Shown piece by piece: positions 742 through 64,000 of a stretch of DNA of 64,000 nt (position 1 is its first letter; every line of letters begins with the position of its first letter). The stretch spans positions 769,001 through 833,000 of the forward strand of contig OZ037903.1 of assembly GCA_964035575.1 (NCBI GenBank), read 5' to 3'. The position numbers were made by a program, and so were the translations under genes. This DNA is from Rhynchopus sp. YZ270_cl-10. Taxonomy: Eukaryota > Euglenozoa > Diplonemea > Diplonemida > Diplonemidae. The notes beneath the pieces were generated by a model, which saw only the letters and a list, made by a program, of their open reading frames with translations, was not told the DNA's origin and ran no database searches.

Positions 742-4534
<3,793 letters not shown>

Positions 4535-4736: not shown

Positions 4737-5387
<651 letters not shown>

Positions 5388-32285: not shown

Positions 32286-33202
32286 GTTTAGGGTGATTTT
32301 TCCCCCCCATTTTTCCTTTTCGTTCTTTTTTACGTAAGCCCTTTCTCTGCTCCCAGGTTCGTTCTTTCGGAGGTAAACGAAACATTCCTCTTCGTATCAT
32401 TTGCTTTGCTTTTATTTTATCCTCCTCACGGGGCCTCCGGTCCATTGGCGCACCCGGACTTATTGTCTACGACTGTCGCCCAGTTTGTACGTACCCGCGC
32501 TACACTATGCACATGCTCGAACACGTCATCGTACGTGCCAAAATTACGAACTCCGGCTGGGGAAATGACATCATCCCTGACAACAGGCTTGGGGAAGCCT
32601 GCGTACAATGTAGCTCCGCCCTAACGAATATGATAAGGTGACTAAGCACGAGAGGCTTAGGGTCATCTTATAAACTTTTCTTTTATTTTGAGTAGGACAT
32701 ATCAGATGTAAACCACGAAATGGATGTATGACTGCATGGTTGGGGTCCACCCCGGTACACCGGTCATGCCAATGTACACTTTGTATTAAGTCAACTTTCT
32801 TTTTTTGTTCCTGAGAACTCAAAAATTCCAGGAAGAGGGTGGAGGGTCCACGGACCAAATATTATTGTCTGAGTTAACCCTAGACTTAGACTGGTTGTAA
32901 CCTGCACATTCCGACATGTGCAATTCAGCTAGTGATGATACGCGACACATATATACTGGTGTACCCTTCCCCAGGTCACCTACCCAAGCTCCATTTGTAG
33001 TAAGTGGAAATAGTCAATCATTACACACCACCTTAACGTGAAGGGCAAAATAAGTCCAAAAAAAAGGGAAAATAAAAAAAACGCTTTGTTACCCCCCTCC
33101 CCTCATCTCACCAACATTATTCGGTCCACTCACACCTCTGTGTGAGTGTTAAGGTTGGAGGGTTCTATAGTATATGGTATCCCTTTCCGTTCCATTCATC
33201 AT
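32286..33202. repeat. Duplicated 5' flank of paralogue 2
   Basis: Matches 40205-40821 upstream of paralogue 3 almost base for base, except for the 260-bp insertion at 32421-32680 that copy 3 lacks. It includes the CTTTGTATTTCAA-family repeat at 32700-32800. Confidence 0.8.
32421..32680 (+). mobile_element. 260-bp insertion ending in a stem-loop, short retroposon-like
   Basis: The orthologous site in the duplicate at about 40290-40310 is empty. The insertion is flanked by TTTTAT on both sides (32415-32420 and 32681-32686), one copy of which is present at the empty site. Its 3' end is the stem-loop TAAGCACGAGAGGCTTAGG plus TCATCTTATAAACTTTTC. A diverged relative of its last ~120 bp lies in the PKA-R intron at about 47250-47333. 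No long frame, so non-autonomous. Confidence 0.7.
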
Positions 33203-34755
33203 GACACCCGAGTCAGCTTTGCACCGTTACTTCCCGCAGGTGCAAAGTGTTAAGGTTGGAGTCTAGAAACACCTTCTTTCACCCCACCCTCTGACACACC
33301 CTCTCACTTTTACTCACACATCACACAGGTTCTTTTCTTGAATCACCAGCAAACAAGATGGGTATCCGTTACACAACTTTGTACTTTGTGTTTTGCTTAG
33401 GTGCCTTGTGTACGACGTATGTCTTGGTGCATTTGTTCATCATCCGGTTTAGATATCCTTGTGGAGATGTGCCTAATGGTGAATGGACAGACCACCGCTG
33501 TTGGGACACGTTTGATGGGCTTCCGTTGGTGCTCAGAGATTCTGAGGAAGGCTGGATAACAGACGGGCCTGGGACGGAGGCAGGGACGTTCAACAGTCTT
33601 CACTATCTTGAGGTGAACGCAACAGCTGACGGCTGCCGTCCGATGCTGGCGCTGTTGTCACAACAAAGTGGCCAGCCGAACGAAGCCATATCAGGGTCAT
33701 GCAACAGGGACTTTGTCTGTTCCTACAACTTCACAGAGGACAAAAACGACCTCTTGTCGATGCACTCCGGGGAGGACAGGACGTTAGGCTTCGGCAACTT
33801 ACCACGCTTTGGCGAGGACACCTGCACCATCACCATCACCGCCGTCCGTGCTTTCTTTGGAAGCGACAGGAAAAAAGAAGCCCTGAACGAGATGGTGTGG
33901 GAGATTCTGGCAGGCATCCCTTTCGGGCTATCGATCGTGTATTGGTGTCTGTTGTTCCGTACGTGCCGTACGCTGTTTGAGGATGAGTTGAGTTTGGACA
34001 CATTCAAACGCAAGCGTGACGACCAAGAACAACAGGTGACGTACCAGCAGATGGACGAAGTGGTAGTGGAAGGGGGGCGGATATAGGGCAACTAAGCTGG
34101 CCCATCAATCGAAGCACCCCTTTGTGTTGAATGGAATGTGTCGTCGTTTTGAGGTTGCGGGACCACAAAACACCTTTACTTCAGAGTTTCAGTTCATTCT
34201 CCAACTCATTCCTCCATTCTTTACGCACACACAGCAAACTCATTTCGATAACGACAGTAGAAATGAATGCACAGTGGGCCATATTCTCATTTTTGTCTCT
34301 CAAGTTTGGTCTATTTTTCAGCAAAAAAAGGCTTCGGCCGAACGTTGAGTACAGACCCTCGTTACTCATCAAGGTGGGTACTAGGCGATTGTGGGTACAA
34401 CAACAAATATCATCTTATTTCACAAATAATATCGATTCCAAATGCCTTCGAGCGACATTGTGCATACCCCGCTTGGTAGGGGCTTGTCGAAACGACAACA
34501 ATATAGTGGAGTTCATCCTCGGGTGTCTACACTAATGCAACCAAGTTTTCAAAAAATAGTGAAGGAATTTTCTGTTGGTCAGTGCGCATAATGCATGCGA
34601 CCCACCTTTGTGCTCTAGATTCACTTTTTTAACCCCGCCTTTCTTTTCTTGTGTCTGCGTCCGTGAGGCGTTCGCACTCAACTTGTATTTTTTTTCTGTG
34701 TGCCTGTATCCGGGCCGCTATCGCTCACAACATATTGCAGTTGAGGGTGATTTTT
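33203..34755 (+). repeat. Segmental duplication, unit 2
   Basis: Second copy of the block at 30709-32285. Its 3' flank lacks the 31593-31662 segment and has an extra ~58 bp at about 34502-34560. Confidence 0.8.
33358..34086 (+). CDS. Lineage-specific two-span membrane protein, paralogue 2
   Basis: 242 residues, clearly the sister of the product at 30864: same membrane spans, same six ectodomain cysteines and the same two sequons (NAT, NFT). Differences cluster in the ectodomain (VPNGEWTDHR for VHNSELGDHR; FNSLHYLEV for FLFLEYLEV; EDKNDLLSMHSGE for SDKNDLILMHAGE). The C-terminal span and tail are nearly identical. No family recognised. The 5' leader is the same as in paralogue 1, including the hairpin at about 33220-33275, so both are probably expressed in the same way. 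Confidence 0.85.
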   Translation: MGIRYTTLYFVFCLGALCTTYVLVHLFIIRFRYPCGDVPNGEWTDHRCWDTFDGLPLVLRDSEEGWITDGPGTEAGTFNSLHYLEVNATADGCRPMLALLSQQSGQPNEAISGSCNRDFVCSYNFTEDKNDLLSMHSGEDRTLGFGNLPRFGEDTCTITITAVRAFFGSDRKKEALNEMVWEILAGIPFGLSIVYWCLLFRTCRTLFEDELSLDTFKRKRDDQEQQVTYQQMDEVVVEGGRI

Positions 34756-34789
34756 TCCCCCCGTTTTCCCGTTCACATATTTTCACGGA

Positions 34790-35340
34790 TCGGAAAAGTA
34801 CTTTGCCCAAAAGTAAAGTACTTTTCCAAAAAAAAAAGTACTTGAAGAAAAAAAAGTACTTTTTTTTTTTCTGTGCAAAAATTGTACGGAGGAAAAAAAA
34901 AAAAAAGTACTTTTTTTTTTCCCGTCAAAAATTCATAGGTTTCGAACGCGCGTTCGCGTTTTTAGGGCGTTTTCGAGTGCGCGTTTGAAAAATGAAAAAA
35001 AAAACGCGCGTTCGGAAAAAACGAGAAAAAAAACGCGCGTTCGGAAAAAGCGAAAAAAAAACGCGCGTTTGAAAAACGAAAAAAAACGCGCGTTCGAAAA
35101 AAACGAGAAAAAAAACGCGCGTTTGAAAAACGGAAAAAAAAAACGCGCGTTCGAAAAAGTGGAAGCCTCATGTTTACGTGGGGAGGTTTTTCGAACGCGC
35201 GTCGAAAAAGTGGTTTTTTCGAACGCGCGTCCAGTTTTTCAAACGCGCGTTCGAAAAAACCACTTTTTCGAACGCGCGTTTGAAAAGAAAAAAAAAAACG
35301 CCCTTTTTTTTTTACGCGCGTCCGGCTTTTCGAACCAGTG
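34790..35340. repeat. CGCGCG palindrome array, copy A
   Basis: Built from AACGCGCGTTCGAAAAA and variants separated by A or T runs, with AAAAGTACTTTT palindromes at its left side. It contains a core block (about 35153-35335, from GTGGAAGCCTCATG to GTCCGGCTTTTCGAAC) that recurs at 36619-36801 and 37329-37512. Long lysine/arginine-rich frames on both strands are artefacts. Confidence 0.85.
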
Positions 35341-36205: not shown

Positions 36206-36925
36206 AGCTCTGTTTCGAACGCGCGTTTTTTTTTTTTTTTTTTGCGCGTTTTTTTTTTTTTTTCATGTGCGCGTTTTCCGATTTTGGATTTGCGCGTTTT
36301 CGATTTTCGAACGCGCGTTCGAAACCTATGAAAATTGTACGGAGAAAAAAAATAAAAAGTACTTTTTTTTTTCCAGTGTTCTAAATTTTTTGTACAGAAA
36401 AAATAAAAAGTACTTTTTTTTTTTTCAAGTACTTTTTTTTTTCCTGTACAATTTTCATAGGTTTCGAACGCGCGTTCGCGTTTTTTAGGCGTTTTCGAGT
36501 GCGCGTTTGAAAAACGAAAAAAAAAAACGCGCGTTCGGAAAAAACGAGAAAAAAACGCGCGTTTGAAAAAAGCGAAAAAAAAACGCGCGTTTGAAAAACG
36601 AAAAAAAAAAACGCGCGTTCGAAAAAGTGGAAGCCTCATGTTTACGTGGGGAGGTTTTTCGAACGCGCGTCGAAAAAGTGGTTTTTTCGAACGCGCGTCC
36701 AGTTTTTCAAACGCGCGTTCGAAAAAACCACTTTTTCGAACGCGCGTTTGAAAAAAAAAAAAAAAACGCCCTTTTTTTTTAACGCGCGTCCGGCTTTTCG
36801 AACGCGCGTTTTTTATTTTTTTTGCGCGTTTTTTTTTTTTTTTCATGTGCGCGTTTTCCGATTTTGGATTTGCGCGTTTTCGATTTTCGAACGCGCGTTC
36901 GAAACCTATGAAAATTGTACGGAGA
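36206..36925. repeat. CGCGCG palindrome array, copy B
   Basis: Same construction as copy A. It is bounded on both sides by inverted GTACTTTTTTTT and TTTCATAGGTTTCGAAC boundaries, so the whole unit is roughly self-complementary. Confidence 0.85.
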
Positions 36926-37626: not shown

Positions 37627-37649
37627 TGATCAGTCTAAATGGGAGCCAA

Positions 37650-38873: not shown

Positions 38874-38926
38874 CATATTCGGGTTTTGGGGGTAATATAA
38901 GGGGGGGGGGGGTAATAGACACCTAC

Positions 38927-39230
38927 CTGTGTACCTGTGTACGTGTGTACGTGTGTACGTGTGTACGTGTGTACGTGTGTACGTGTGTACGTGTGTACGT
39001 GTGTACGTGTGTACGTGTGTACGTGTGTACGTGTGTACGTGTGTACGTGTGTACGTGTGTACGTGTGTACGTGTGTACGTGTGTACGTGTGTACGTGTGT
39101 ACGTGTGTACGTGTGTACGTGTGTACGTGTGTACGTGTGTACGTGTGTACGTGTGTACGTGTGTACGTGTGTACGTGTGTACGTGTGTACGTGTGTACGT
39201 GTGTACGTGTGTACGTGTGTACGTGTGTAC
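38927..39230. repeat. GTGTACGT microsatellite, about 38 units
   Basis: An 8-bp unit is repeated without interruption over about 300 bp. It alternates purine and pyrimidine strictly, so it is a strong Z-DNA candidate. Because 8 is not a multiple of 3 and the unit has no stop in any frame, every frame on both strands is open. Confidence 0.97.
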
Positions 39231-40204: not shown

Positions 40205-41706
40205 TTCGTTCTTTTTTACGTTAGCCCTTTCTCTGCTCCCAGGTTCGTTCTTTCGGAGGTAAACAAAACATTCCTCTTCGTACCATTTGCTTTGCTCTTA
40301 TTTTATTTTGAGTAGGACATATCAGATGTAAACCACGAAATGGATGTATGACTGCATGGTTGGGGTCCACCCCGGTACACCGGTCATGCCAATGTACACT
40401 TTGTATTAAGTCAACTTTCTTTTTTTGTTCCTGAGAACTCAAAAATTCCAGGAAGAGGGTGGAGGGTCCACGGACCAAATATTATTGTCTGAGTTAACCC
40501 TAGACTTAGACTGGTTGTAACCTGCACACATTCCGACATGTGCAATTCAGCTAGTGATGATACGCGACACATATATACTGGTGTACCCTTCCCCAGGTCA
40601 CCTACCCAAGCTCCATTTGTAGTAAGTGGAAATAGTCAATCATTACACGCCACCTTAACGTAAAGGGCAAAATAAGTCCAAAAATAAAGGGAAAAGGAAA
40701 AAAAACGCGTTGTTACCCCCCTCCCCTCATCTCACCAACATTATTCGGTCCACTCACACCTCTGTGTGAGTGTTAAGGTTGGAGTCTAGAAACACATCCC
40801 TTTCCGTTCCATTCAATTCATCATGACACCCGAGTCAGCTTTGCACCGTTACTACCCGCAGGTGCAAAGTGTTAAGGTTGGAGTCTAGAAACACCTTCTT
40901 TCACCCCACCCTCTGACACACCCTCTCACTTTTGCTCCACATCACACAGGTTCTTTTCTTGAATCACCAGCAAACAAGATGGGTATCCGTTACATAAGTA
41001 TGTATTATGTGTTTTGCTTAGGGGTCTTGTGTACGACGTATGTCTTGGTGCATTTGCACATCATCCGGTTTAGATATCCTTGTGGAGATGTGCCTGAGTA
41101 CTCCCCGCGGATTAAGGACTTGCCAGACCTCCGCTGTTGGGACACGTTTGATGGGCTTCCGTTGGTTCTCAGAGATTATGAGGAAGGCTGGATAACAGAC
41201 GGGCCTGGGACGGAGGCAGGGACGTTCAACAGTCTTCACTATCTTGAGGTGAACGCAACAGGTGATGGCTGCCGTCCGATGCTGACGCTGTTGTCACAGC
41301 ACCCTGGCCGGCCGAACGCCCGCATATCAGGGTCATGCAACAGCGACTTCGTCTGTTCCTACAACTTCACAGACGAGAAAAACGACCTCTTTTTGATGGA
41401 GTCCGGGGACGACAGGACGTTAGGCTTCGGCAACTTACCACGCTTTGGCGAGGACACCTGCACCATCACCATCACTGCAGTCCGTGCTCTCTTTGGAAGC
41501 GACAGAATAAAAGAAGCCCTGAACGAGATGGTGTGGAAGATTCTGGCAGGCATCCCTTTCGGGGTGTCAATTGTGTATTGGTATCTTTTCATCCGGCTTG
41601 TCCATGACCTGTATCCACAGCAGTTGACTTGGGACACATTCAAATGCAAGCGTGACGACCAAGAACAACAGGAGACGTACCAGCAGATGGACGAAGTGGT
41701 AGTGGG
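40205..41706 (+). repeat. Segmental duplication, unit 3
   Basis: Matches 32286-34086 (5' flank plus gene) without the 260-bp insertion. Similarity ends at the stop codon region, so the 3' flank was not duplicated or has been replaced. Confidence 0.85.
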
Positions 41707-41710
41707 GTAG
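40979..41710 (+). CDS. Lineage-specific two-span membrane protein, paralogue 3
   Basis: 243 residues, the most diverged of the three paralogues. The first membrane segment (with ISMYYVF) and the C-terminal one (WKILAGIPFGVSIVYWYLFI) are kept. The ectodomain has an insertion (VPEYSPRIKDLPDLR) near the first cysteines. The segment after the second span is different (RLVHDLYPQQLTWDTF), and the tail ends VVVG. The ectodomain cysteines and the two sequons are conserved. The leader, including the hairpin with the CTTTGCACC stem at about 40840, is shared with the other copies. Function unknown. Confidence 0.85.
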   Translation: MGIRYISMYYVFCLGVLCTTYVLVHLHIIRFRYPCGDVPEYSPRIKDLPDLRCWDTFDGLPLVLRDYEEGWITDGPGTEAGTFNSLHYLEVNATGDGCRPMLTLLSQHPGRPNARISGSCNSDFVCSYNFTDEKNDLFLMESGDDRTLGFGNLPRFGEDTCTITITAVRALFGSDRIKEALNEMVWKILAGIPFGVSIVYWYLFIRLVHDLYPQQLTWDTFKCKRDDQEQQETYQQMDEVVVG

Positions 41711-45036: not shown

Positions 45037-47508
45037 ATGGCGAACCTACAGCAGATCTATAAAAGTAGCTGTGGCGAGTTGGGGATCAAGGCGAATTCCA
45101 AGCTGATGGGGATGCTGCCTGATAGCGGGACCTTGGAGACTTTGGACTTAACGTCGAACATGATTGGGAACAAGGGGCTTCTTGCGTTGTTGAGTGTGAT
45201 TGATGCTTGCCCTGATATGCAGGTTTTGTGTTTGAACGGGAATATGCTGGCGTCGCCTGTCATCAAGGACCTAGCAGCCAAGCTCCGTTCACACAAACGT
45301 GTGAAGTCGATTGACCTCTCGGACAATGACATCCGTCTTGCCGGTCCCGACCTGGTCGACCTCCTGAAGCAGAACCGCGGCATCGTGGACCTGAACATCA
45401 CCGGCACACACCTGCGCCCCCTCTTCGTCAACCTCATCACCATGCAGCTCAAGAAGAACGTCGCAGCGGGAGGTGCTTCCGAAGCTCCACCCACCGCAAG
45501 CACACCGCAGGCTCAGGAGACAGCACGCAACCCCGAGCCTGCTGCAGACGCACCACCACCCGCAGCAGCAGCAGAAACACCAGCGGCGCCCGAAGAAACC
45601 AAACAGGACGCACCTGCAGCAGAACCTGCAGCAGAGCCGGCACCCACACCTGAACCTGAACCCGTTGCTGAGGCACCTAAGGAGGAGGTTGTCCCTGAGG
45701 TTGCTCCCGAGGCAGAAGCCAAGGAAGAGGTAAAGGAAGAGCCAAAGGAAGAGGCCGTTGCACCAGCGGAAGAGACACCTGCAAAGGAAGAAGTGTCCGC
45801 GCCAGAGGCAACAGAGGCAGCACCCGAGACAGAGGCGGCTCCCGAGGCAGTAGCGGAGCCAGTGGCAGAGGCACCCGAGGCAGTGGCAGACGTCGCCCCC
45901 CCTGCAGAAGAGACACCAGCCCCAGAGCCTGAGGCTGCAGAGGCACCTGCAAAGGAAGCCCCTGCAGAAGCTGAGCCAGTGGCAGAGGTAGAGACAAAGG
46001 CAGTAGCAGAGACTGAGGCAGAGGCAGCCCCTGAAGCAGACGCAGATGCAAAGGCCAAGGCAGAGGAGGCCGAGAAGGCTGAGAAGGCCAAGGAAGAGGC
46101 CAACGCAGAGGTGAAGGAGGAGGCCAAGGCAGAAGAGGCTGAGAAGGTAGAGAAGGCCAAGGAGGAAGCCAAGGCAGAGGCGAAGGAGGAGGCCGTACCC
46201 GCACCGGTGGAGACCACAGAGGATGCGTTCGGAGGCTTCAACGACGGGCAGGCCTCACCTGTAGAGTCGCCCACCGGTGCAGGAGGGTTTGGCGACTTTG
46301 GGTCGTTCGATGACACAGCGAACCAAAACATCTTCACGACAGACCACACTGCGGAGCTGCCGAAGGTGGACAGGCCACCGAGCGCGCCTGGCGGTGGCCT
46401 GGGCGAGCCACGCGGGGCAACGAGGCGGGCGACGGTGTGTGCGGAGGCGTACTCGGAGACGCAGATCGATTCGTTTGCGCCGGATAAGTTTCCGAAGGAG
46501 GATGAGGTGCAGAACTTCTTATCGTCTGCGCTTGAGACGAACCAGCTGTTCAACCATCTCGACGACTACGAGGTACAGGTGGTCATCGACGCACTCAAGG
46601 AGGAGACCGTCACGGCAGGGGCGAACCTCTTCTCGGAAGGCGACGCAGACATGGAGCACTCCTACCTCCTCAAGGAGGGCACCATCGTTGTCTCCTCCGG
46701 CACAAGCAAGACAGAGACAATGAACAAAGGCAGCTTCCTCGGCGAGGTCTTCCTGCTGTACCCGCAAACCTCCACGGAGACTGCCAAGGCGGAGACGGAC
46801 TGTGTGCTGTATTCGATCAACCGCAAGACGTTCAAGTTTATTCTGCATTCTGCGTCGAAGAAGAAGCGTGCCAAGTACGAAGGCTTCTTGATGAAGGTGC
46901 CGTTCCTGTCGATGCTCAAGAAGGACCAGATCCTGCTGCTCGCAGATGCGCTGAAGTCGACACAGTACGAGGCAGACGACACGGTCATCAAATACGGCGA
47001 GGAAGGCAACTGGCTGCACATCGTTGTCGAAGGCACCGTCAAGGTCATCGGACGCGACGCTGACGACAACAAGATTGAGGTCTGCTCCTTCACCGTCGGC
47101 GACTGTGTCGGCGAGTTGGAGTTCCTCAACCAGCACAAAACCGTTGCCGACGTTCTTGCAGAGGGCAAGTATGCTAACACAAAACCCTACCCCCCTCACA
47201 CACAGATTTTTTCACCACAGTTTTAAGTGTCACAGTAATTCCAACAATTTAAGACATCATCCCTGGCAACAAACTTGTGGAATCCAACGCAGCTGTTGCT
47301 CCTATTCATCAGGGTCATCTTATAAACTTTTTCTTACTTGACACCCACACCAAACAACCTTTGCAGGGTAAGAACCGCGAAGATGAACCGACGCCACTTT
47401 GAGATGTGCATGGGACCGGTTATTGACATTCTCCGCAAAAACGCAGACAAGCTGGAGGTCTACTCCTACTACCGGGATACACTCGCGAAGGCACGTGAGA
47501 AGGCGTGA
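45037..47508 (+). CDS. PKA regulatory subunit, euglenozoan type with N-terminal LRR
   Basis: Exons 45037-47168 and 47367-47508 (GTATGC-CAG, phase 2) give 757 residues. Residues 1-145 are ribonuclease-inhibitor-style leucine-rich repeats (LETLDLTSNMIGNKGLLALL, VKSIDLSDNDIRLAGPDL), as in trypanosomatid PKA-R. A huge Ala/Glu/Pro/Lys linker covers about 150-405. An inhibitor-site sequence RRATV lies at 463-467, then two cyclic-nucleotide-binding domains. Their phosphate-binding cassettes read GEVFLLYPQTSTETAKA (from residue 569) and GELEFLNQHKTVADV (from 692); the glutamate is kept but the cAMP-phosphate-binding arginine is absent in both. Trypanosomatid PKA lacks this arginine too and answers to purine nucleosides instead of cAMP, so the same is likely here. 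The partner catalytic subunit is not in the window. Confidence 0.9.
47250..47333 (+). repeat. Diverged copy of the 260-bp insertion element inside the PKA-R intron
   Basis: GACATCATCCCTGGCAACA and the end AGGGTCATCTTATAAACTTT align with the last ~120 bp of the element at 32421-32680. The 5' arm of the terminal stem-loop is missing. It sits just before the 3' splice site and supplies the T-rich tract. Confidence 0.6.
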
Positions 47509-49387
47509 TGTTGATAGGCTATAGTCGTGGAGAGGAGGAGAGAATGACGTGTCTGCTTCCTACTGTGGGTGTGAGGCGAATACGGTAGGTAAATACAAAA
47601 AAAGGGCAATAAAAGAAAGAAACCCAAGAGATATTGCTCAACCCCCATGTTTTTGTTTTTTGGTTGAAGTTGGTAGAATGACTAAAGGCTACCCTATCTT
47701 TGCCAGCTCTTTGTGTTTTTTTGGCATGGTGGGTCAGTCGGAGGTGTCGGCTTTAACAACTACCATTTTTTTCCAGAAAAAAAGTAGAGTTGAAATGCAA
47801 AGCACTGTTCACGAGAGGGCTTTGCATTTCAACTCTACTTTTTTCCCCCCGCGTCCCTTCTTTGCGTAATTGTCCAATGTAGTAGGTGCTGTTTGTTTAT
47901 ATAATGTTTTCACATAATCCCCACTCATAGTGAGATTGTACCAGTTCATTTTCTTGTTTTATTTAATCCCAAACACGAAACGATTCCCTCCCTTTGGAAA
48001 CACACAAAAAAAGTGGGTATTTTTGCAGAATTATTTCAATAAAAAAAAACACTTCAAAAATAACGAAAAAAAGAAAATAAAAAAAAGACGGGCTTTACAG
48101 TCCGTTTCAATGAGAAGAGAGGACAGCGGAAAAAAGAAAGGCAAGAAAGAACAAAGGTACAGTGAAGACTGTAGATGACAGCTACACTGATTTCAACAAA
48201 TTATCAAAAGGAAAAAAGGTATCCGCATATAGAAGAGGGCCGTTTGCAATTGTATCCTACGTTTTGTGAAGTGAAATTGAATGATACCGCTTTTGGGTTC
48301 TGTTGGAACACTTTGACGTTATATTAATGGATGTAGGTGTGTATAATTGGGATCCACCCCCGGTACACCGATTATGTACAAAGGAACACTGTCAAGCGGG
48401 CTGTTGTATTTCAAATAAACTATGTTTTTTGGTTGTTTGGGACGCATGCGAGACTTCGTCAAATAAAAAAAATAAGTATCTCTTTTTCTCTTGAATTTTT
48501 TTTGTTGTTATTTGCGCATCTGCGCCTCTCTCTACAAAATGTGTTAATATGCGCTTTTCTCACAGCGGTATTCAATGTGTTGCAAAGTTTTCTTTCTTCG
48601 TGCTTCTCGAGAATGGTTCATTACAGCAAAGCAAGAAAAAAGGAAGGCACATTCATCAAATTGTGAAGCATTTTTTTTTTTTTCTAAGCATGAGCTCGAC
48701 TGAGCGATGCGTTTTAAGCACGTTTCAACTACTATTTTTTTTTGTGACAACTGCCTTGCAAAGGTTGTAGGGGAGGAAATGAAAACATATCTGAGTTGTG
48801 CCCGAATTTTTTGGTGTGAGCGATGTAAACACGACACAACTTATTCACAGAAAAGTTTTTGATTTTGTCCCTACACACTCCACAAAAATCCGGTGCGATC
48901 AACGAAAAATTCTTTTTCTGATTTCGTTTCTTTCTTTATCAGACTAGCTTAAACTCAGATAACAGTTTTTATTTCTGCCACAACTTACGTGAGGCAGGCC
49001 CTCCCCCTCTCTCTCCTTTCCCACCTACACTGAGACAAAATAAAATTTCCCCGTTTCTAAAAAATGCGGTTGCAAAATTTCCAACAAAGAAGGGACGTTC
49101 GCAACGAACGTTACACCTCTTCCTCCTTCCCCCCTTCCCATTATCCTGGGGAATGAAGAAAGAGCACCCCCCTCTTTTTTCTTTCCGGTGATTTTGCATA
49201 GGGAATTTTTTGTTTTGTTTCAAAACCCCAAAAAAACTATATTTTTTTTCCTCCATTTCTTCCCGCATTCCCTCCCTTTCCGAAAACAAAAGAAAAAAGG
49301 CGAACACAAGAAAAAGAATTTATTGATTCTCCCCTACCTTACCCCCACCATACCACCACCACCCTTCCCTACAGACAACACAATGCA
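47509..49387. other. Intergenic region with a perfect hairpin and repeats
   Basis: Contains the 26-bp hairpin at 47778-47844, a CTTTGTATTTCAA-family relative at 48325-48425, and GAGCTCGACTGAGC-type sequence at 48690-48735 that resembles 50832-50875. No convincing gene. Confidence 0.45.
47778..47844 (+). repeat. Perfect 26-bp stem hairpin with ACGAGAG loop
   Basis: Positions 47778-47803 and 47819-47844 are exact reverse complements; the 15-nt loop is ACTGTTCACGAGAGG. The 3' arm GCTTTGCATTTCAACTC matches the dispersed CTTTGTATTTCAA family and the loop matches the other stem-loop families. As RNA it would be a stable precursor-microRNA-like hairpin. Confidence 0.85.
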
Positions 49388-53775: not shown

Positions 53776-54593
53776 AAATTGTCGGGGAAAAATGAAGTGA
53801 AACCATGTGATGAAAAGTCTGCAGGGTTGCGAGGAGAAGGGCACATATTGGGTCTTTGAGTATACCAAACAAAGCCCGGTTTTTTTGATAACATTTTTTA
53901 ATATGATTCGTTTCCTTTTTTCTCTTTTTTTTCTGTACAGACTTTGGTACTCCAAATGGTCGATTTTTTTCTTTTTTTTTCAAGTGGCGAGGCTTGTACT
54001 CAGTTTATCAACCTTTTCCTTTCCCTTTTTCTTCAGAGCGTGCTCCAGCGCGACAACGATAGTGGTATAGATGTGTGTGCATGATGAGGCAACATTCATT
54101 TTCCAAAGTTTTCTTTTCTTCAGAGCAGCCGGGTCTCTCCTCAAAAAGCCTCGAAGCGCTTCAGTATTTCCAGAGTTTTCGATGATGTGGACACAGTCAG
54201 TGATACGCATCTTCCAAATTATCCTTTTTTCCAAACTTTTAAACGATTCTCATATGGTGGTGGATGAGCCCTCGTGACCGTCTTGCCTCTATTTACGGTT
54301 TTTTTCACATAAAAACGCGACGATATCATTTTTTTCTGTTCGGTTCTTTGCTGTGTTACCGTTTTCTGTCGTGCTATACAAAAAAAATATATATTGCCTC
54401 GCCCTTTTTCTGTTCTCTTGTTGTTCTTTGCTCTTTCCTGTCCTTTTTTTTTCTTCTTTTTTTTTCTTTTTTTGTGCCAATTTCACAACATTCACAAAAA
54501 TAAAGGACTCTTTTATAATCTCAACCCCCACTACCACACCCTCAAAAAAAAAATCACACAAAAACCAGACAAACCACAACACAAAGAGACACA
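53776..54593. other. Spacer with a TGTGC-type stem-loop relative
   Basis: Homopolymer-rich. GATGTGTGTGCATGATGAGG at 54070-54089, followed by ACATTCATTTTCC, is a degenerate stem-loop family member. The last 60 bp are an A/C-rich leader. Confidence 0.45.
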
Positions 54594-56678
54594 ATGAGGG
54601 CCATGATTCTCACTGGATGCGCAGTGCTTTCAGTGGCACAGCTTCCAGTAGACCCAAAGGCACCTAACAACACTACGGGGGTGAGACCGCCACCACACAA
54701 CGCAACGTTGCCTATGCCCTTCCCCAAGAACACAACTGACCCAAACGCACCGCCACACCCACCTACCACTGGGGGCATCGTCCCGCCTTGGATGACGAAC
54801 GGTACAAACCACACTGCCCCGTGGCCTGCCCCATGGCCAATGCCGCCTACGAACTTCACGTTCCCCTCAATGAACCACACAAACGGATCGTGGCCGTTCC
54901 CTCCACTGTTCAATATGACGAAGCCGAATGTCACAATGCCGTCGGTGTGCATGTGTGATGCGTCTGGGAGTAACGGGAAGAGTGGAAGCAAGTCGAAGAG
55001 TGGAAGCATGGGGAAAGGGGGTGGGCCTGCATCACCCAGTCGTGGCAAGTCCGGCACCTCAAACGGCATTCTTGATAAGATTGCAGAGCTTGCAGAGCAA
55101 TGTCTCTGCCTCGCTGGTGGCAGCCAAGGCATGAAGGCACCCCCACGTCAGCAGTGTGCCGGAGGCGTCGCCAACCTCATCGAAGATGAAAAGTCGCAGT
55201 GCTGCACACAAAAGAATGTGGGCTGCCAGCCCCCCGCTCGCTACAACTGCAACGGAACAGCTGTGGAAGTGTCGACCTGGGAGGAGGACCGCCAGAGGTA
55301 CTGCTGCGAACGTGAAATGGTGGGCTGCGACTTCCTCGAGATGCCTGTGTTCGACTGCCAGTGGGTGGATGCAGAGAAGCCGTGGACAAAGAACCACGCA
55401 GCATACTGCTGTGAGAAGGAGAACCAACGCTGCCCCGACGCAGACGAGGTGAAGAGTGAGGAGGAGAAGGAGACGTGCCGCCGCCTTGAGGAGGCAAGTC
55501 TGCTGAAGGACACAACTGCGGAGATGACGCAGAAGTGCTGCAGGGGCTTCGACAAGGGTTGTGCGTCTGAGCACGACTGCTTCTCCGACACGGACTTTGA
55601 ACTGTGGGACGCGAAGAAGCGCACCTTCTGCTGCCGTGACAAGGACGTGGGATGTGCTTGGCAGTGCGACAACGCGGCTGTTGAGGGGGGCGAGCTTCTG
55701 GAGGACCAGGCAGACTTCTGCTGCGAGACGAAGGGGATGTGCACAGACGCGTGGCACGCTGCACAGGAGCAGATGGACGCTGCAGAGGAGGAGGTTGAGA
55801 AGCAGGCTGGCCGCGCACCCCGCAAGTTCCGCATCAAGATTGAGGGCAGTGCCGAGGAACTGCTTGGGGGTCCGAAGAAGCTGCTGGCACTGTACCGTTG
55901 GGCGATCATGACGGCAAGCCCCGAGCTGATGATGGACCCTTCGCTGTTCGACCTTGAGCACATTGGTGTTCTGATGGCAAACCTGACTGTGCCACCGAAG
56001 GACAAGGAGGACAAATGGGGTGTGCGTTGCCCCCGCTCATGGAACAAGGAGATGCACGGCGACGAGAACAACCGCACACACGTGCACAAGAAGAACGTCG
56101 CCTCACGCTACGGTGCGGCACTCGCCACCTCGAGCAGCGGTATGTACGTCGACTACACGCTTGACCCCTCTGCCACTACGGCTGCAGCCGACATTGCTGC
56201 GCAGACTGCCACTGGCACCCTTGGCGACGGCAGTGGCCAGGACCTCAATGTCATTGAGGGCCAGCAGGAGCTGAGCACTGCAGCAATCCCTGTACCCACT
56301 GTTGCTGTGCGGGTTGTGTCGGAGGAGGACGACGACGACTCTTCGGACAAGGCGCTGATGATTGTGTTGATTGCGCTGGGCACGCTGTTCCTGTGCTGCA
56401 TCATTGCGGCATGTGCCTTCTGCCTGCTGTGCAAGAAGAAGGGCGACAAACAACCCAAGGAGCAGCAGCAGGAGAAGCAGGAAGACTTCGACGACATGCA
56501 GTACCCCACACCACAGAAGGCAGACAGCCCCGTCATGGGGCAACCGGTCCAGCCTATGCAGCCGATGCAGCCTCGCGAGCAGGTATGTCCACATGATGCT
56601 TTCCTCCCTCACCACCTCTTCTTGCAGAACCCCCTCAAGGAAGTCTTCCCCGAGGTGACCAAAGGGGAGAGAGTCTAA
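54594..56678 (+). CDS. Type I membrane protein with Cys-rich ectodomain, paralogue 1
   Basis: Exons 54594-56582 and 56628-56678 give 679 residues. A short signal peptide (MRAMILTGCAVLSVAQ) leads into a Pro-rich region with many N-x-T/S sequons. Then comes a Cys-rich ectodomain of five similar units of about 30 residues: a Cys (often DC or NC), a Trp in several units, then CC and a Cys 5-6 residues later (for example CQWVDAEKPWTKNHAAYCC). A helical domain (LLALYRWAIMTASPEL) and a linker follow, then a membrane span at about 593-615 (ALMIVLIALGTLFLCCIIAA) and a cytosolic tail ending near LKEVFPEVTKGERV. It is a surface glycoprotein; similar CC motifs occur in uncharacterised dinoflagellate proteins as far as I recall. 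The 45-nt intron has no stop in frame, so unspliced mRNA would add 15 residues. Confidence 0.85.
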   Translation: MRAMILTGCAVLSVAQLPVDPKAPNNTTGVRPPPHNATLPMPFPKNTTDPNAPPHPPTTGGIVPPWMTNGTNHTAPWPAPWPMPPTNFTFPSMNHTNGSWPFPPLFNMTKPNVTMPSVCMCDASGSNGKSGSKSKSGSMGKGGGPASPSRGKSGTSNGILDKIAELAEQCLCLAGGSQGMKAPPRQQCAGGVANLIEDEKSQCCTQKNVGCQPPARYNCNGTAVEVSTWEEDRQRYCCEREMVGCDFLEMPVFDCQWVDAEKPWTKNHAAYCCEKENQRCPDADEVKSEEEKETCRRLEEASLLKDTTAEMTQKCCRGFDKGCASEHDCFSDTDFELWDAKKRTFCCRDKDVGCAWQCDNAAVEGGELLEDQADFCCETKGMCTDAWHAAQEQMDAAEEEVEKQAGRAPRKFRIKIEGSAEELLGGPKKLLALYRWAIMTASPELMMDPSLFDLEHIGVLMANLTVPPKDKEDKWGVRCPRSWNKEMHGDENNRTHVHKKNVASRYGAALATSSSGMYVDYTLDPSATTAAADIAAQTATGTLGDGSGQDLNVIEGQQELSTAAIPVPTVAVRVVSEEDDDDSSDKALMIVLIALGTLFLCCIIAACAFCLLCKKKGDKQPKEQQQEKQEDFDDMQYPTPQKADSPVMGQPVQPMQPMQPREQVCPHDAFLPHHLFLQNPLKEVFPEVTKGERV

Positions 56679-57732
56679 GAAGGCGCTCAACAGCTCAGCA
56701 GAGAAAGAAAAATGTGAGGCGGGGTTTCTTTTCAAGTTCCGCTTTCCACCCGATTATTCTAGGGTGGTAATTATTGGTCATTTTTTTTTCTCTTTTTTCT
56801 TCGATTTTCCCGCTTTTTGTAGCTTTGTTTTGTTGGAAATGCACCTGCGAAATAATAACAATAACCTAGAATGCAAAAGAAAAAAATGTAAAGCAGAAAT
56901 GTGTTTGTCTTGCAGACCCTTTTTTTTCTTCTTTTTTTGTGCGCAGTTTCCCTTCTTTTCCCCTTCTCCTCCCGTGCGCGTGTGTTGACTGTTCTCAAGT
57001 GTTCTCGTTTATTTAGCTATTGAGTTAGGTGACCAAGCAGAGAGAGGATTAATGGCATCGTTCTCAATTTTTTTTTTCCTCTCTTTTGTTTGAGAGAACA
57101 TTCCTGGGTTGAAGGCATCCAGAAAAGAGGCTTTAAACACCGCACACCAGCTCCCTCCCCTTCTTAACACATCCTAGCAATAAAAGCAAGATGTGTGTTG
57201 AGAATACCTCATTGTTAGGTCAAAAAAAAAAATGCACCAGCTTTCTGAGCAAGAGGTTTCCTAATGTTTCCTTACGAAAAAAATATGAAGAAGAAGAAAA
57301 AAAGAAAATACAACAAAAGTGAGAATACCGTGAAAGGTCCCCAAAAATTCCCGTGGATTCCCTGGATCCGGGGGGTGCTTAGCGAGTTTTCAAAAAACAT
57401 TTTTTGATAAAATGAGATTTGTAATTTGTTAAGATTTTGGACCTGTGGAGAAGGTAGAAAACACAGGAAACTCATCGTATTTTGTTTTTCTTTTGAAAAA
57501 TTTGCCCCCCTAAATCAGGGTAGCAAAAATACGCAAAAAAAAAGAGCAACGAACGACACCTATTTTGTTTGGGTGTGATTATGGTTTGAACTAACAAAAA
57601 AAAAGGTCTTCAGAAAGAAACCAACCATCCTTTCAAAAACATGCCGACCAACGAACCGGCCAGAACATGTTGATGAGGGTCTCTGCTTCTCTGGGCGTCC
57701 TTCCGACATTTTTTTTTTTTTTTTTTGCGAAG

Positions 57733-57832
57733 GAGTCTGAGCATCTGAGGCTTAGGATCATCTTACCAACCTTTTTATGATTTCTATTTTGAGATGACTA
57801 AGCACGCCTTACGTTCATCTTATAAACTTTTT
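57733..57832 (+). repeat. Two successive TAAGC-type stem-loop repeats
   Basis: GAGCATCTGAGGCTTAGG with ATCATCTTACC, and ATGACTAAGCACGCCTTACG with TTCATCTTATAAAC. Both keep the 3' tail TCATCTTA; the second has a shortened loop. Confidence 0.6.
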
Positions 57833-58344
57833 TAGGTGACCTTTTCAAGACTAACAGATATACACAAGAGGCACGTGGTCAGACCAAAGTTCACAAATTT
57901 CTTCACGAACCTTTGCCACACCTTCAACGGTATACCGTCTATTTAAAAAAAAACACCGTTTCAAAAAATACCCCTTCGGTGTACAACGTGGACAGCTCTT
58001 GTCTATTGTGACCAATGTGGTATTTTGTTTCTTTTTTTTTTCGTTGATACACAAAAAGGTTCCAATCCATCTCGTTGGGACTTGCAGTTTTCTGTGGTGG
58101 AGTGTTTATGCACACCTCCCCCCCTTCACCACATTTTTGATTTGATTTATGTGGTTTTTTTTAAAGATGTGTATGCAAGGCACATTCATCTTTGAACCCC
58201 CTTTTTTTTTGTTCGGTTTTCCTCACCGAAACCGTGTTCCACCTATTGCGAGTGGCCCAGCTTTCAATGGGGGTGTGTACCATGTGTGGGCGTTGCTCTG
58301 CAGGTGTTTGATGCAAAGGTTTAATGCAAAAACAGCCAACATTA

Positions 58345-58384
58345 TGTAAGCACGAGAGGCTTAGGGTCATCTTATAAACTTTTC
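58345..58384 (+). repeat. TAAGC-type stem-loop repeat, canonical
   Basis: TAAGCACGAGAGGCTTAGGG followed by TCATCTTATAAACTTTTC, identical over this stretch to the 3' end of the insertion at 32421-32680. Confidence 0.75.
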
Positions 58385-59389
58385 TTAGGTGGCCATATCA
58401 TTTGGCGAGGTAAAACGCATTTTTACGGGTGGTAATATTAATCCATTTGCTGAGAAAATCCACCGTTACTATGAAATGCATCGTTTTCCCCCAAATTTTC
58501 TTAGAAAAAAAATAAAAAATAGTGGCGACCGAGTACGAGAGAGGCGTAGGTTCGTCTTACAAAACGTTTTTTTCTTTAGTTCAGTGCCTGTGTCTGCTGG
58601 GTGTACGGTGAGATGTGTTGTACTTTCACCTTTTTCTTTAACAACAGCGCTATCCATGCCTTCCGGGCCCCCAGAGGGCTGATCTAAAAAAGAAAAAAAC
58701 TCTGTACCTTCCGTAGTACAAAGGCTTCGGCCAATTGATATAGGTTCCCCAAGCGGGTCCTTAGGCGATTGTCGACACAACAAAAGAAAGTAACCATTAT
58801 GAGAGGGGAGAAGCTTCTTTTCCTTAGTCCCAGGAGGTGTTAGGTGATGTACCAACCAGATTGTCTGCCACTACAAATCACTCGCAATTATATAAACCCC
58901 CCCCCCCCCCCCCCCGTCCCCCATAGGGCCAACCCACCTCATTATATTATCCCCACTGAACAAAAGAAGGCTACACGCTATTTTGTTTTTCTCTTTTTCT
59001 GTCTTTTGAATTTGAAAAAAGCCTTTTTTGTGGGTGAATTTTCCCTGAGGAAACTCCTTTCCCCTATTTTGAGCCCTCAGTTTTTTTTTTCTCAAAAAAA
59101 AAGTACATTGTACGGTGTTCTAGTTATGTTTTCTCCCCCCTTTCTTGGCTATGAAGCCATAGTCATAATATATGTTTCTAAGGGTGAAGACTGTTTCTGT
59201 TTAGTGAACTTTGCTAAACAAGGCTTCGGCCGAACACGAACAAAATAAAATAAACGACCAGACCAGAGGCATCAAACCCGCTGCCACAACTCTTCATGAG
59301 CTGTGCCGTCTGTATGAAACAACTGAACCTATAGGTAGAAGTGTTTTGAACAGACAGAACCGTGTTTTTTTTTTTTTTTTTCTTGTTTG

Positions 59390-59470
59390 GTGACTAAGCA
59401 AATGAGAGGCTTATAATCATCTTATAAAGATCTGTGTGCACGAAAAGCACATTTCATCTTTCATAGTTTT
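59390..59470 (+). repeat. TAAGC-type and TGTGC-type stem-loops back to back
   Basis: TGACTAAGCAAATGAGAGGC with TCATCTTATAAAG runs directly into CTGTGTGCACGAAAAGCACA with TTTCATCTTTC. The junction suggests one element inserted at the tail of the other. Confidence 0.65.
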
Positions 59471-60665: not shown

Positions 60666-63410
60666 ATGCATTCTTTTGTACTGATTTCATGTGCGGCGCT
60701 TTCAGTAGTGCAGCAGTTGCCCAACGGGACTGTTGTGGGGCCACCAACAAACGGAACCAACAGTACCGGACCCATGCCTATGCCCATGCCACCGCAGAAC
60801 GGCACTAACCACACCGGACCCAGGCCCATGCCTCCCCAGAATGGTACCAACAGCACCGGGCCCAGACCCATGCCGCACCAGAACGGAACCAACAGCACTG
60901 GACCCATGCCTATGCCCGTGCCTCCCCAGAACGGCACTAACCACACCGGACCCAGGCCCATGCCTCCCCAGAATGGTACTAACAGCACCGGGCCCAAGCC
61001 TATGCCACCGCAGAACGGCACCAATGGCACCGGACCCAGACCCATGCCGCACCAGAACGGCACTAACCACACTGGACCTAAGCCCATGCCACACCAGAAT
61101 GGAACCAACGGTACTGGACCCAAGCCTATGCCACACCACAACGGCACCAACGGCACCGGACCCAGACCCATGCCACACCGGAACGGAACCAATGGTACTG
61201 GACCTAAGCCCATGCCGCACCAGAACGGCACCAACAGCACCGGACCCAAGCCCATGCCAAAGCCGCATCAGAACGGCACCAACCACACTGGACCCAAGCC
61301 TATGCCACACCAGAACGGCACCAACAGCACCGGACCCAGGCCCATGCCGCACCAGAATGGAACCAACGGTACTGGACCTAAGCCCATGCCAAAGCCGCAT
61401 CAGAACGGCACCAACCACACTGGGCCCAAGCCTATGCCACACCAGAACGGCACCAACGGCACCGGACCCAGACCCATGCCACACCAGAATGGAACCAACG
61501 GTACTGGACCTAGGCCCATGCCAAAGCCGCATCAGAACGGCACCAACCACACCGGACCCAAGCCTATGCCAAAGCCGCACCAGAACGGCACCAACGGCAC
61601 CGGACCCAGACCCATGCCGCACCAGAATGGAACCAACGGTACTGGACCCAAGCCCATGCCAAAGCCGCATCAGAACGGTACCAACCACACTGGACCCAAG
61701 CCTATGCCACACCAGAACGGCACCAACGGCACCGGACCCAGACCCATGCCACACCAGAATGGAACCAACGGCACCGGACCCAAGCCCATGCCAAAGCCAG
61801 ACCAGAACGGTACCAACCCGAAGGGTGGAGACAAGGCACCGAGGACACCTTGCTCGGGAAGCGCAAAGGGCTTTGGTGAGACTGAGCGTGACGTGTGCTG
61901 CACAGAGAAGAACGTGGGCTGCAAGCCCCCCACCCGCTACAACTGCAACGGAACAGCTGTGGAAGTGTCGACCTGGGAGGAGGACCGCCAGAAGTACTGC
62001 TGCGAACGTGAAATGGTGGGCTGCGACTTCCTCGAGATGCCTGTGTTCGACTGCCAGTGGGCGGATGCAGAGAAGCCGTGGACAAAGAACCACGCAACGT
62101 ACTGCTGCGAGAAGGAGAACCAGCGCTGCCCCGACGCAGACGAGGTGAAGAGTGAGGAGGAGAAGGAGACGTGCCGCCGCCTTGAGGAGGCAAGTCTGCT
62201 GAAGGACACAACTGCGGAGATGGCGCAGAAGTGCTGCAGGGGCTTCGACAAGGGTTGTGCGTCTGAGCACGACTGCTTCTCCGACACGGACTTTGAACTG
62301 TGGGACGCGAAGAAGCGCACCTTCTGCTGCCGTGACAAGGACGTGGGATGTGCTTGGCAGTGCGACAACGCGGCTGTTGAGGGGGGCGAGCTTCTGGAGG
62401 ACCAGGCAGACTTCTGCTGCGAGACGAAGGGGATGTGCACAGACGCGTGGCACGCTGCACAGGAGCAGATGGACGCTGCAGAGGAGGAGGTTGAGAAGCA
62501 GGCTGGCCGCGCACCCCGCAAGTTCCGCATCAAGATTGAGGGCAGTGCCGAGGAACTGCTTGGGGGTCCGAAGAAGCTGCTGGCACTGTACCGTTGGGCG
62601 ATCATGACGGCAAGCCCCGAGCTGATGATGGACCCTTCGCTGTTCGACCTTGAGCACATTGGTGTTCTGATGGCAAACCTGACTGTGCCACCGAAGGACA
62701 AGGAGGACAAATGGGGTGTGCGTTGCCCCCGCTCATGGAACAAGGAGATGCACGGCGACGAGAACAACCGCACACACGTGCACAAGAAGAACGTCGCCTC
62801 ACGCTACGGTGCGGCACTCGCCACCTCGAGCAGCGGTATGTACGTCGACTACACGCTTGACCCCTCTGCCACTACGGCTGCAGCCGACATTGCTGCGCAG
62901 ACTGCCACTGGCACCCTTGGCGACGGCAGTGGCCAGGACCTCAATGTCATTGAGGGCCAGCAGGAGCTTGTCACACTTGTGACCGACGTTCCTGCCAACT
63001 CTTCTACTTCCGGCACTTTCACCTCTGAGAGCGACGACTCGAGCTCCTCCAAGAACACAACTATTGCGATTATTGCGGCTGTGATTGCGACTATTATGTT
63101 GGTCCTGATTGTCATTCTGGTTGTGTTCACGTGCAGGCGCAAGCAGCAGCAGCAGAAGCAGGAGGAGGAGATGGGACAGCAGCAGAAGGTGAAGGAGATG
63201 GAGGAGTGGACTCCGAGCAGCCGTGCGTCTGGTTCGCCCGTTAACGTCGAGCGCATTGAGCAGGTATGTCACCCATACAGTATTTGACAGGAAGTGCCCA
63301 CTCTTTGATAACCCACCCACGCATCCACCAACCCTCACACACAGAACCCGTTGGACGATGTCTTCCCCGAGTCTCCGAAGTCCGGAGCAGGTTCCAGCGG
63401 TCGTGTCTGA
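60666..63410 (+). CDS. Type I membrane protein with N-glycan repeat stalk and Cys-rich ectodomain, paralogue 2
   Basis: Exons 60666-63263 and 63345-63410 (GTATGT-CAG) give 887 residues. A signal peptide (MHSFVLISCAALSVVQQ) is followed by about 24 units of 14-16 residues, QNGTNGTGPKPMPH with H, S or G at the second sequon and an optional KP. Most units hold two consecutive N-x-T sequons, about 45 in all. After this stalk comes the same five-unit Cys-rich domain as in paralogue 1, then a membrane span (TIAIIAAVIATIMLVLIVIL) and a tail rich in Q, K and E. From 61933 to 62966 the DNA aligns with 55237-56270 without indels and almost without substitutions, whereas the ends differ. A heavily glycosylated cell-surface protein; ligand unknown. 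Confidence 0.87.
60745..61815 (+). repeat. In-gene tandem repeat encoding QNGTNxTGPxPMP units
   Basis: About 24 units of 42 or 48 bp. The longer units carry an added CCAAAGCCGCA segment (KPH). A higher-order pattern (short, short, long) is visible from about 61200, which suggests expansion by unequal exchange of multi-unit blocks. Confidence 0.9.
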
Positions 63411-64000
63411 TCGATGCGCATTATTTTTGTTGTTTCCGCCACTGCGATCAATTCCTGACCCCCACCTACCCTCCCAGTTCTAAATATTTCGGGTGCCTGT
63501 ATCCACGGACACAATGCACCCCCTTTCAACAGCGAAACCGTTTGCTTTTTTTTTCAAACAGAACAGCAAACCAAACTGCTTTGTTCCTATTAGTTTGCAT
63601 CGTACCGCGATGTGTCAGCAAGGAGTATTTCCGTTTGTTTGACAATGCGCCGTTGTTTGCGGCGCATTTTTTCCTTTCAATATGTCCTTTTAAATTGTGT
63701 TTCTGCTTTTTTTCAGCGTGCATATCCTATGTCATGAATTTAAAATTTGAATTTACAAAAATACCTCAATTTTTTACAAAGTGCAATTGTCCCACCTTAT
63801 TTATTTTTGAAGTGAGTAACAGAAACTTTCCCACAATGAGGAACAAATGGGGCTTTGCATTTAGTGTTGTCAGAGCGGTGTTAGTCATCTTTCAAAGCTT
63901 TCTCTTTCTTCCGCGGAGTTCAGTGCCTGCTGTCAGCTTTGGCTAGATGTTGGCACTCTCAACTTATCTTTTCTTAGATGTGTGTGCACGAGAGGCACAT
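63411..64000. other. Intergenic DNA to the window end, with a stem-loop at the edge
   Basis: No gene supported. GGGGCTTTGCATTTAG at 63850-63865 is a fragment of the CTTTGTATTTCAA family. At 63976-64000 a TGTGC-type stem-loop (TGTGTGCACGAGAGGCACAT) runs off the window. Confidence 0.5.

What the first reader, a model, noticed from the sequence alone, without database searches (positions are those of the whole stretch)
32638..64000. Dispersed stem-loop families share a loop and tail while their stems covary
Two recurrent short elements have the form stem-ACGAGAG-stem-tail. One reads CTAAGC-loop-GCTTAG plus (G)GTCATCTTATAAAC; the other TGTGC-loop-GCACA plus TTCATCTTTC. A third, at 47778-47844, has a perfect 26-bp stem around the same ACGAGAG. 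Different but internally complementary stems with a constant loop imply selection on RNA structure, not simple copying. I found about a dozen TAAGC-type members (including 630, 8118, 14291, 32638, 57733, 57796, 58345, 58527, 59390) and about five TGTGC-type members, all on the + strand, the same strand as all genes. They lie between genes or in introns, never in a confident coding exon. Possible roles: 3' recognition hairpins of short retroposons, or conserved RNA processing signals near acceptors.
Basis: partly seen in the sequence, partly recalled or inferred. Interest (0 to 1): 0.75.

Follow-up and report, generated by a model that had tools for sequence, protein, structure and literature searches.

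The report
Retrotransposon tail hairpins, one strand only
The repeated little hairpins are the tail ends of a selfish copy-and-paste element in a diplonemid-like protist; in the sequence sampled most copies are just the roughly 45-letter tail and lie on the same strand as the genes, which is unusual and may point to a one-way insertion process.

Summary
The hairpins are real. The TAAGC type (family A) is the 3' tail of a non-LTR retrotransposon (LINE): a copy elsewhere in the same 152-Mb genome encodes an endonuclease-reverse transcriptase whose stop codon lies 10 nt before the hairpin. The window holds a 5'-truncated copy at 32420-32680 with an empty site at a paralogous locus. The palindrome at 47778-47844 belongs to another family, D. 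Of 78 sampled family-A copies 70 stop at the hairpin's 5' base. Two-sided stem changes exceed shuffles, but one-sided decay dominates. All 26 matches in unselected sequence lie on the coding strand; 45 of 45 kinase genes near a marker share its strand; T-run targets are strand-balanced. Decidable LINE-A reverse-transcriptase ORFs are 13 sense, 0 antisense; five other RT groups 10 and 14; seven more 21 and 4, so strand bias varies between elements. Best reading: stringent-type LINE tails, mostly reduced to tail-only copies, laid down in one direction. LINE identity is strong; recognition and directional insertion are inferred.

The parts
32420..32680 (+). 5'-truncated LINE-A copy: last codons of ORF2, short 3' UTR, family-A hairpin and start of the T-rich tail
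   Evidence: empty site at the paralogous locus 40284-40316
32635..32681 (+). family-A hairpin (TAAGC type) and tail inside that copy
628..672 (+). family-A hairpin copy
8116..8157 (+). family-A hairpin copy, diverged
14288..14333 (+). family-A hairpin copy, weak
47308..47333 (+). LINE-A-related copy: tail present, 5' part of the hairpin missing; sequence like the end of ORF2 at 47253-47295
57730..57776 (+). family-A hairpin copy
57792..57833 (+). family-A hairpin copy
58346..58385 (+). family-A hairpin copy
58524..58573 (+). family-A hairpin copy, weak
59389..59433 (+). family-A hairpin copy
14170..14200 (+). family-A2 (TGTGC type) hairpin
54068..54102 (+). family-A2 hairpin, diverged
58164..58192 (+). 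family-A2 hairpin
59427..59460 (+). family-A2 hairpin
63975..64000 (+). family-A2 hairpin, cut by the window end
47778..47844 (+). palindromic (fold-back) copy of the 3' end of family D, 26-bp stem

Best explanation
The hairpin plus tail is the 3' recognition end of an endonuclease/reverse-transcriptase LINE (here called LINE-A) of a diplonemid-like protist. Inferred mechanism: the LINE protein binds the 3' stem-loop of its RNA, the U-rich RNA end anneals to the A-run of a nicked or open antisense strand at a T-run, and reverse transcription starts there. Most sampled products end at the 5' base of the hairpin, so the template is either a free hairpin RNA of about 45 nt or the cDNA often aborts there; either way tail-only copies accumulate. 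Copies appear in the sense of the polycistronic gene clusters, which I attribute to a strand-directional primer (lagging-strand Okazaki ends, if replication runs with transcription, or the transcribed strand). Shown: the LINE, its 3' end, truncation, the sharp 5' end, T-rich context, strand bias in the sampled data. Inferred: protein binding, priming mode, cause of the bias.
For: An ORF of 1454 aa with Pfam RVT_1 (4.9e-24) and Exo_endo_phos (1.6e-13) ends 10 nt before the hairpin. Its C-terminal 60 aa match 150 scored of 421 candidate places, in open frames from 1462 aa down to 35 aa, as expected from 5' truncation and decay. Two empty sites: L002 against two copies of a host repeat, with TTTTTTTC on both sides of the insert, and the window's long copy against the paralogous locus, with CTTTTATTTT on both sides. 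Flanks of one copy match each other better than shuffled pairs (42 pairs, p 0.002). 70 of 78 copies stop at the hairpin base; of 1038 exact hairpins 212 continue 8 nt further upstream. Strand: 26 of 26; adjacent listed places within 100 kb on one strand: A 80/83, A2 30/30, LINE ORF ends 23/23, control repeat 21/41; kinase genes 45 of 45; LINE-A RT ORFs 13 to 0, 14 of 27 undecided.
Against: Only two family-A empty sites were found, and their duplications are T-rich, so their length is uncertain. The parents of A2 and of families B, C, D, E and H were not found. Family B breaks the strand rule in 7 of 67 cases. Of the other RT groups five are mixed (10 sense, 14 antisense) but seven lean to sense (21 and 4), so a sense lean is not special to LINE-A and could have a general cause. 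Strand domains rest largely on A, A2 and LINE-A places themselves; the independent gauges are the coding score and the kinase genes. Nothing here separates insertion bias from very strong early selection, or transcription from replication.
Confidence: 0.82

Rival explanations
1. The strand bias comes from purifying selection: insertions happen in both orientations, but antisense copies are removed because they disturb polycistronic RNA processing.
For: Leishmania SIDERs show a sense excess of about 4-fold that differs by compartment (PMC2689281, passages seen), which fits selection on transcripts. Family B shows a partial bias (60 of 67), and seven other RT groups lean to sense (21 and 4).
Against: The bias is strict in copies with long open frames, hence young (23 of 23 adjacent LINE ORF ends; 13 of 13 decidable LINE-A RT ORFs). 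Long ORFs of five other RT groups occur antisense as often as sense (10 sense, 14 antisense), as does a control repeat (21 of 41 adjacent places on one strand; 3 of 12 on the strand of the nearest A).
Confidence: 0.35
2. The hairpins are host RNA-processing signals (trans-splicing, polyadenylation or termination elements) placed between genes.
For: Sense-only placement in the sample and a pyrimidine-rich tail.
Against: The same sequence is the LINE's own 3' end, copies have empty sites, lie several to a gap, are followed by YAG no more often than other T-runs and change mostly on one side of the stem.
Confidence: 0.05
3. The copies are mobile non-canonical introns (introner-like), whose paired ends and sense-only orientation would follow from splicing.
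For: Hemistasiid diplonemids have short non-canonical introns whose ends pair (PMC12621601, abstract and results section read).
Against: No A or A2 copy in the window interrupts a predicted coding segment; flanks are T-rich; the Biopterin_H gene of the window reads with GT-AG introns (my reading).
Confidence: 0.03
4. The copies are single-strand DNA transposons or hairpin-ended elements (REP-like or Helitron-like).
For: Short hairpin elements with strand bias.
Against: An RT/endonuclease ORF ends at the hairpin, longer copies are 5'-truncated, and the two empty sites show T-rich duplications.
Confidence: 0.02

Closest known systems
Stringent-type LINEs with a 3' stem-loop (zebrafish ZfL2-1/ZfL2-2; eel UnaL2 by recall) and SINEs sharing that tail
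   Same: An ORF2 with endonuclease and RT, a short 3' stem-loop, 5'-truncated copies. In ZfL2 the protein is reported to recognise the stem generally and the loop specifically (PMC4176376, abstract seen).
   Different: Here most sampled copies are tail-only, about 45 nt, with no 5' head; the 3' end is T-rich; copies lie on the gene strand.
Leishmania SIDERs (truncated ingi-like retroposons)
   Same: Euglenozoan, truncated retroposons in intergenic regions of directional gene clusters, sense excess (PMC2689281, passages seen).
   Different: SIDERs are longer (several hundred nt, recalled) and about 4-fold sense-biased, with an antisense excess between polyadenylation and trans-splice sites; here 0 of 26 family-A copies in unselected sequence are antisense.
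Human L1 orientation bias in genes
   Same: A LINE with an orientation bias attributed largely to the insertion process (PMC5717806, abstract seen).
   Different: L1 is biased against the sense orientation, through transcription-coupled repair; here the bias is towards sense.
Endonuclease-lacking group II introns (RmInt1)
   Same: Insertion into the template of the lagging strand, with possible nascent-strand priming, is thought to be the main pathway (PMC5010178, abstract seen).
   Different: Bacterial ribozyme; LINE-A carries an endonuclease domain. The parallel is to a possible mechanism, not kinship.

Membership tests
APE-type non-LTR retrotransposon (LINE) | ORF with reverse transcriptase and AP-type endonuclease domains | tested here: met
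   PF00078 at 674-883 and PF03372 at 90-291 of the 1454-aa ORF
APE-type non-LTR retrotransposon (LINE) | 5'-truncated copies with a constant 3' end | tested here: met
   Open frames from 1462 aa downwards around the same C terminus; series window, L008, L015, L017, L002 with one 3' end
APE-type non-LTR retrotransposon (LINE) | Target-site duplications | tested here: inconclusive
   Two empty sites with T-rich duplications; flank match above shuffles, p 0.002 for 42 pairs; low complexity leaves the length open
APE-type non-LTR retrotransposon (LINE) | No long terminal repeats | not tested
   Only 357 nt upstream of the ORF2 start of one copy were fetched
Stringent-type LINE/SINE tail | 3' stem-loop shared by the LINE and its short copies | tested here: met
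   Same hairpin in L051 and in tail-only copies
Stringent-type LINE/SINE tail | ORF2 protein binds the stem-loop and needs it | not testable with these tools
   Needs binding or retrotransposition assays
SINE | A 5' head derived from a pol III transcribed RNA (tRNA, 5S, 7SL) | tested here: not met
   70 of 78 copies show no LINE sequence before the hairpin base and have T-rich flanks there; no Rfam family at gathering score in the window
SIDER | Trypanosomatid retroposon signature sequence | not tested
   No search for the signature was run
Diplonemid non-canonical intron | Interrupts coding exons | tested here: not met
   No A or A2 copy overlaps a predicted coding segment of the window
Diplonemid non-canonical intron | Is removed by splicing | not testable with these tools
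   No RNA reads are held

The most novel reading that the evidence does not exclude
A LINE family, and perhaps several short retroposon families of the same genome, integrates only in the direction of polycistronic transcription (or of co-directional replication), so that chromosomes carry a strand map written by insertions; and its 3' hairpin alone, about 45 nt, behaves as one of the shortest retroposons, with roughly 15,000 copies (26 per 264 kb, scaled to 152.4 Mb).
Probability: 0.45. Interest if true: 0.78.

Novelty: new variant of a known kind. Interest (0 to 1): 0.62.

Why it matters
A near-absolute sense bias in a LINE, present in copies with long open frames and absent from some other reverse-transcriptase elements of the same genome, would be a natural experiment on what decides the direction of target-primed insertion: replication fork, transcription or selection. 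The tail-only copies show how little RNA a LINE machinery may need to mobilise. In practice the copies mark gene-cluster direction, and repeats of about 45 nt are easily missed by ordinary repeat annotation (my judgement).

Tried and rejected
Rfam scan of the window: no match at gathering scores. Family F as an unbiased control (12 sense, 5 antisense) was set aside because its reverse complement begins related repeats, as the termini of a transposon would; a host repeat and other RT families were used instead. Target sequence as the cause of the bias: runs of 8 or more are 284 T and 263 A in the sense strand; T-runs of 7 or more away from elements are 371 sense and 374 antisense with like flanks. 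Smooth LINE truncation as the source of the short copies: rejected by the sharp 5' end. Covariation per copy: modest. Two other LINEs: L037 contains the 3' end of one, L052 stopped short of its stop codon and had no match to the short-family profiles. One search was a first comparison whose output was cut.

Rows left out and controls in full. Search listings show only the first 100 places or the best 150. One search used 100 of 100 A, A2 and control rows, 99 of 100 B rows and 124 of 150 LINE rows (contigs with two or more); its control repeat was on the strand of the nearest A in 3 of 12 cases. One search used 127 of 131 kinase rows, of which 45 had a marker within 100 kb, and as markers all 150 LINE and 100 A2 rows, 50 of 100 A rows, 32 of 100 rows, 49 of 100. 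One search used 146 of 150 RT rows and a subset of markers. At 150 kb (sense, antisense, undecided): LINE-A 13, 0, 14; the five groups of 1364, 1329, 1320, 1862 and 1322 aa together 10, 14, 28; the seven groups of 1747, 3381, 1597, 1890, 2034, 1057 and 986 aa together 21, 4, 28; the 1505/1803-aa group 0, 0, 14. I put the five groups forward as the mixed ones after seeing the result. In one search the orientation of L001-L030 was partly set from family A itself, so only its column for the window and L031-L050 is independent; the coding signals of L048 and L041 are weak. Slid controls reach 3 to 10 two-sided cells against 14.

Full report
What was checked. The window lies in a 152-Mb assembly of 126 contigs. 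Coding signal in the window lies on + (1768 against 115), the ATP synthase alpha-like gene looks trypanosomatid-like to me (recalled, no call), and the relatives of the retrotransposon found below include many Diplonema papillatum proteins, so I treat the host as a diplonemid or near relative. Diplonema genes are reported to be co-transcribed in groups, to carry spliced leaders, and to lie among many transposable elements (PMC10161547, passages seen).

Genome-wide the two cores occur 2479 and 318 times exactly, with no match to the reversed control patterns. The hairpin is larger than described: AAGGTGA and TCATCTT close the base, with one G-U pair in family A; 1 of 200 and 0 of 200 shuffles fold as well as the A and A2 sequences. 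The perfect palindrome at 47778-47844 is the 3' end of another repeat, family D, with its inverted copy in front.

What it is. Most pairs of copies share only about 60 nt, but a few extend upstream in a graded series: the window's copy at 32420-32680, L008, L015, L017, L002. The upstream part is the C terminus of a protein. Searched through the genome it matches 150 scored of 421 candidate places, many in an open frame of 1462 aa, others in shorter frames. One such copy, L051, has an ORF of 1454 aa with AP-endonuclease and reverse-transcriptase domains; its stop codon is followed by 10 nt, then the family-A hairpin and TTTTCTTTT. So the hairpin is the 3' end of a non-LTR retrotransposon. Two insertions could be compared with empty sites. 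In L002 the insert sits in a host repeat that is uninterrupted in the window (28.4-28.7 kb, minus) and in L035, with TTTTTTTC on both sides. The window's long copy sits upstream of one of three paralogous genes; the paralogous locus at 40284-40316 is uninterrupted, and CTTTTATTTT flanks the insert on both sides. Flanks of one copy resemble each other more than shuffled pairs do (42 pairs, mean common stretch 5.2 against 4.7, p 0.002), although T-rich sequence makes this a soft test.

Tail-only copies. Of 78 copies, 70 show no detectable similarity to the LINE beyond the hairpin base and 8 do; in the unselected part it is 24 and 1 of 25. Diverged copies could hide a short extension, but among exact hairpins, too, 212 of 1038 continue 8 nt further upstream and the rest do not match there exactly. 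A smooth loss from the 5' side would not pile up at one point, so either a free hairpin RNA of about 45 nt is the template, or cDNA synthesis often aborts just after the hairpin. I cannot separate these. The density in unselected sequence, 26 matches in 264 kb, suggests about 15,000 copies; this is an extrapolation.

Covariation. On an alignment fitted to the model, 8 of 13 pairs show two-sided changes against 2.7 in shuffles, and 14 cells against 3.1, while slid versions of the structure reach 3 to 10 cells; 91.4% of cells pair against 89.4% in shuffles. Without the copies chosen by their 3' arm, 16 two-sided changes (8.4 expected), 14 of them still pairing, stand against 107 one-sided changes. 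So the structure covaries between lineages, as A against A2 shows, while single copies mostly decay. I read this as selection on active masters, not on each copy.

Strand bias. In the window and 20 unselected 10-kb stretches, oriented by coding signal, family A is 29 sense to 0 antisense by sequence profile and 26 to 0 by covariance model; A2 8 to 0, B 15 to 1, C 4 to 0, D 21 to 1, E 13 to 0, H 8 to 0, F 12 to 5. Adjacent listed places within 100 kb share a strand in 80 of 83 cases for A (the three changes lie between blocks), 30 of 30 for A2, 23 of 23 for LINE ORF ends, 52 of 61 for B and 21 of 41 for a control repeat; B is on the strand of the nearest A in 60 of 67 cases, the control in 3 of 12. 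As an independent gauge of gene direction, kinase genes lie on the strand of the nearest A, A2 or LINE marker in 45 of 45 cases within 100 kb. Reverse-transcriptase ORFs of LINE-A are 13 sense and 0 antisense by neighbouring markers, 14 undecided. The other RT groups differ: five together are 10 sense and 14 antisense (28 undecided), seven together 21 and 4 (28 undecided), one undecided throughout (14). So a strict bias is not a rule for all retroelements here, but neither is LINE-A the only group that leans to sense. The target does not explain the bias: T-runs are about equally common on both strands and have like flanks.

Reading of the bias. Copies with long open frames, hence young, are as strictly sense as the rest, and some other long RT ORFs are found antisense as often as sense; I therefore favour a directional insertion step over later selection, at about 0.45. 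The antisense strand must supply the primer: Okazaki ends would do so if replication runs with transcription, and such priming is considered for endonuclease-lacking group II introns (PMC5010178, abstract). Transcription-coupled repair, invoked for human L1, works in the opposite direction (PMC5717806, abstract). LINE-A has an endonuclease domain, which tells against a purely nascent-strand model; its activity is unknown.

Known or new. 3' stem-loops recognised by their LINE protein are known (PMC4176376, abstract), and sense-biased truncated retroposons are known from Leishmania, at about 4 to 1 (PMC2689281, passages). In the searches, judged by their listings of 8 to 20 titles, I saw no paper on such elements in diplonemids or on a near-absolute sense bias in a LINE; the library holds open-licence papers only, no preprints and few subscription papers.

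Noticed in passing
window 6619-6725, 25854-25939, 32701-32804, 40321-40424, 48308-48423: Family D, a dispersed repeat of about 125 nt ending in TTTCAACTCTACTTTTT, 21 sense to 1 antisense in unselected sequence; the copy at 25854 lies in an intron of a Biopterin_H (aromatic amino acid hydroxylase) gene.
   Followed up: partly
window 34502-34549: Family B copy (TATAGTGGAGTT...CAAGTTTT) whose empty site is preserved at the paralogous locus 32083-32106; insertion without a clear target duplication, in an A-rich site. Family B is on the strand of the nearest family A in 60 of 67 cases.
   Followed up: partly
window 7145-7193, 22859-22902, 32191-32230, 34650-34689, 63918-63971; 47703-47771: Further sense-biased short families E and H (13 to 0 and 8 to 0), whose 3' ends resemble each other (AACTTCACTTTTT); parents unknown.
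   Followed up: no
window 26975-28473: Six nearly identical tandem copies of a 249-bp unit; a related repeat interrupted by a family-A copy in L002 occurs in both orientations elsewhere (658 exact core matches).
   Followed up: partly
contigs C1-C31 of the genome: Marker strands fall in long blocks; in the listed places many contigs change once from minus to plus, as if transcription ran outwards from an inner switch point. C1 and C2 have several blocks.
   Followed up: partly
window 4082-4531 and 4890-5384: Two neighbouring genes for ubiquitin fused to ribosomal protein S27a, with the same predicted fusion protein.
   Followed up: partly
window 30864-31592, 33358-34086, 40979-41710: Three paralogous ORFs of 242-243 aa; their flanks served as empty-site controls.
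   Followed up: partly
window 54594-56678 and 60666-63287: Two paralogous ORFs that share a cysteine-rich part; the second carries a long Asn-Gly-Thr-rich repeat array.
   Followed up: no
L037 4-2961 and L052: Another LINE family (1597-aa frame at C4:1605057) that in L037 ends next to a leucine-rich-repeat-like sequence; its listed RTs were 4 sense, 0 antisense, 1 undecided.
   Followed up: partly
window 38924-39230: About 38 copies of an 8-base unit TACGTGTG in a row.
   Followed up: no
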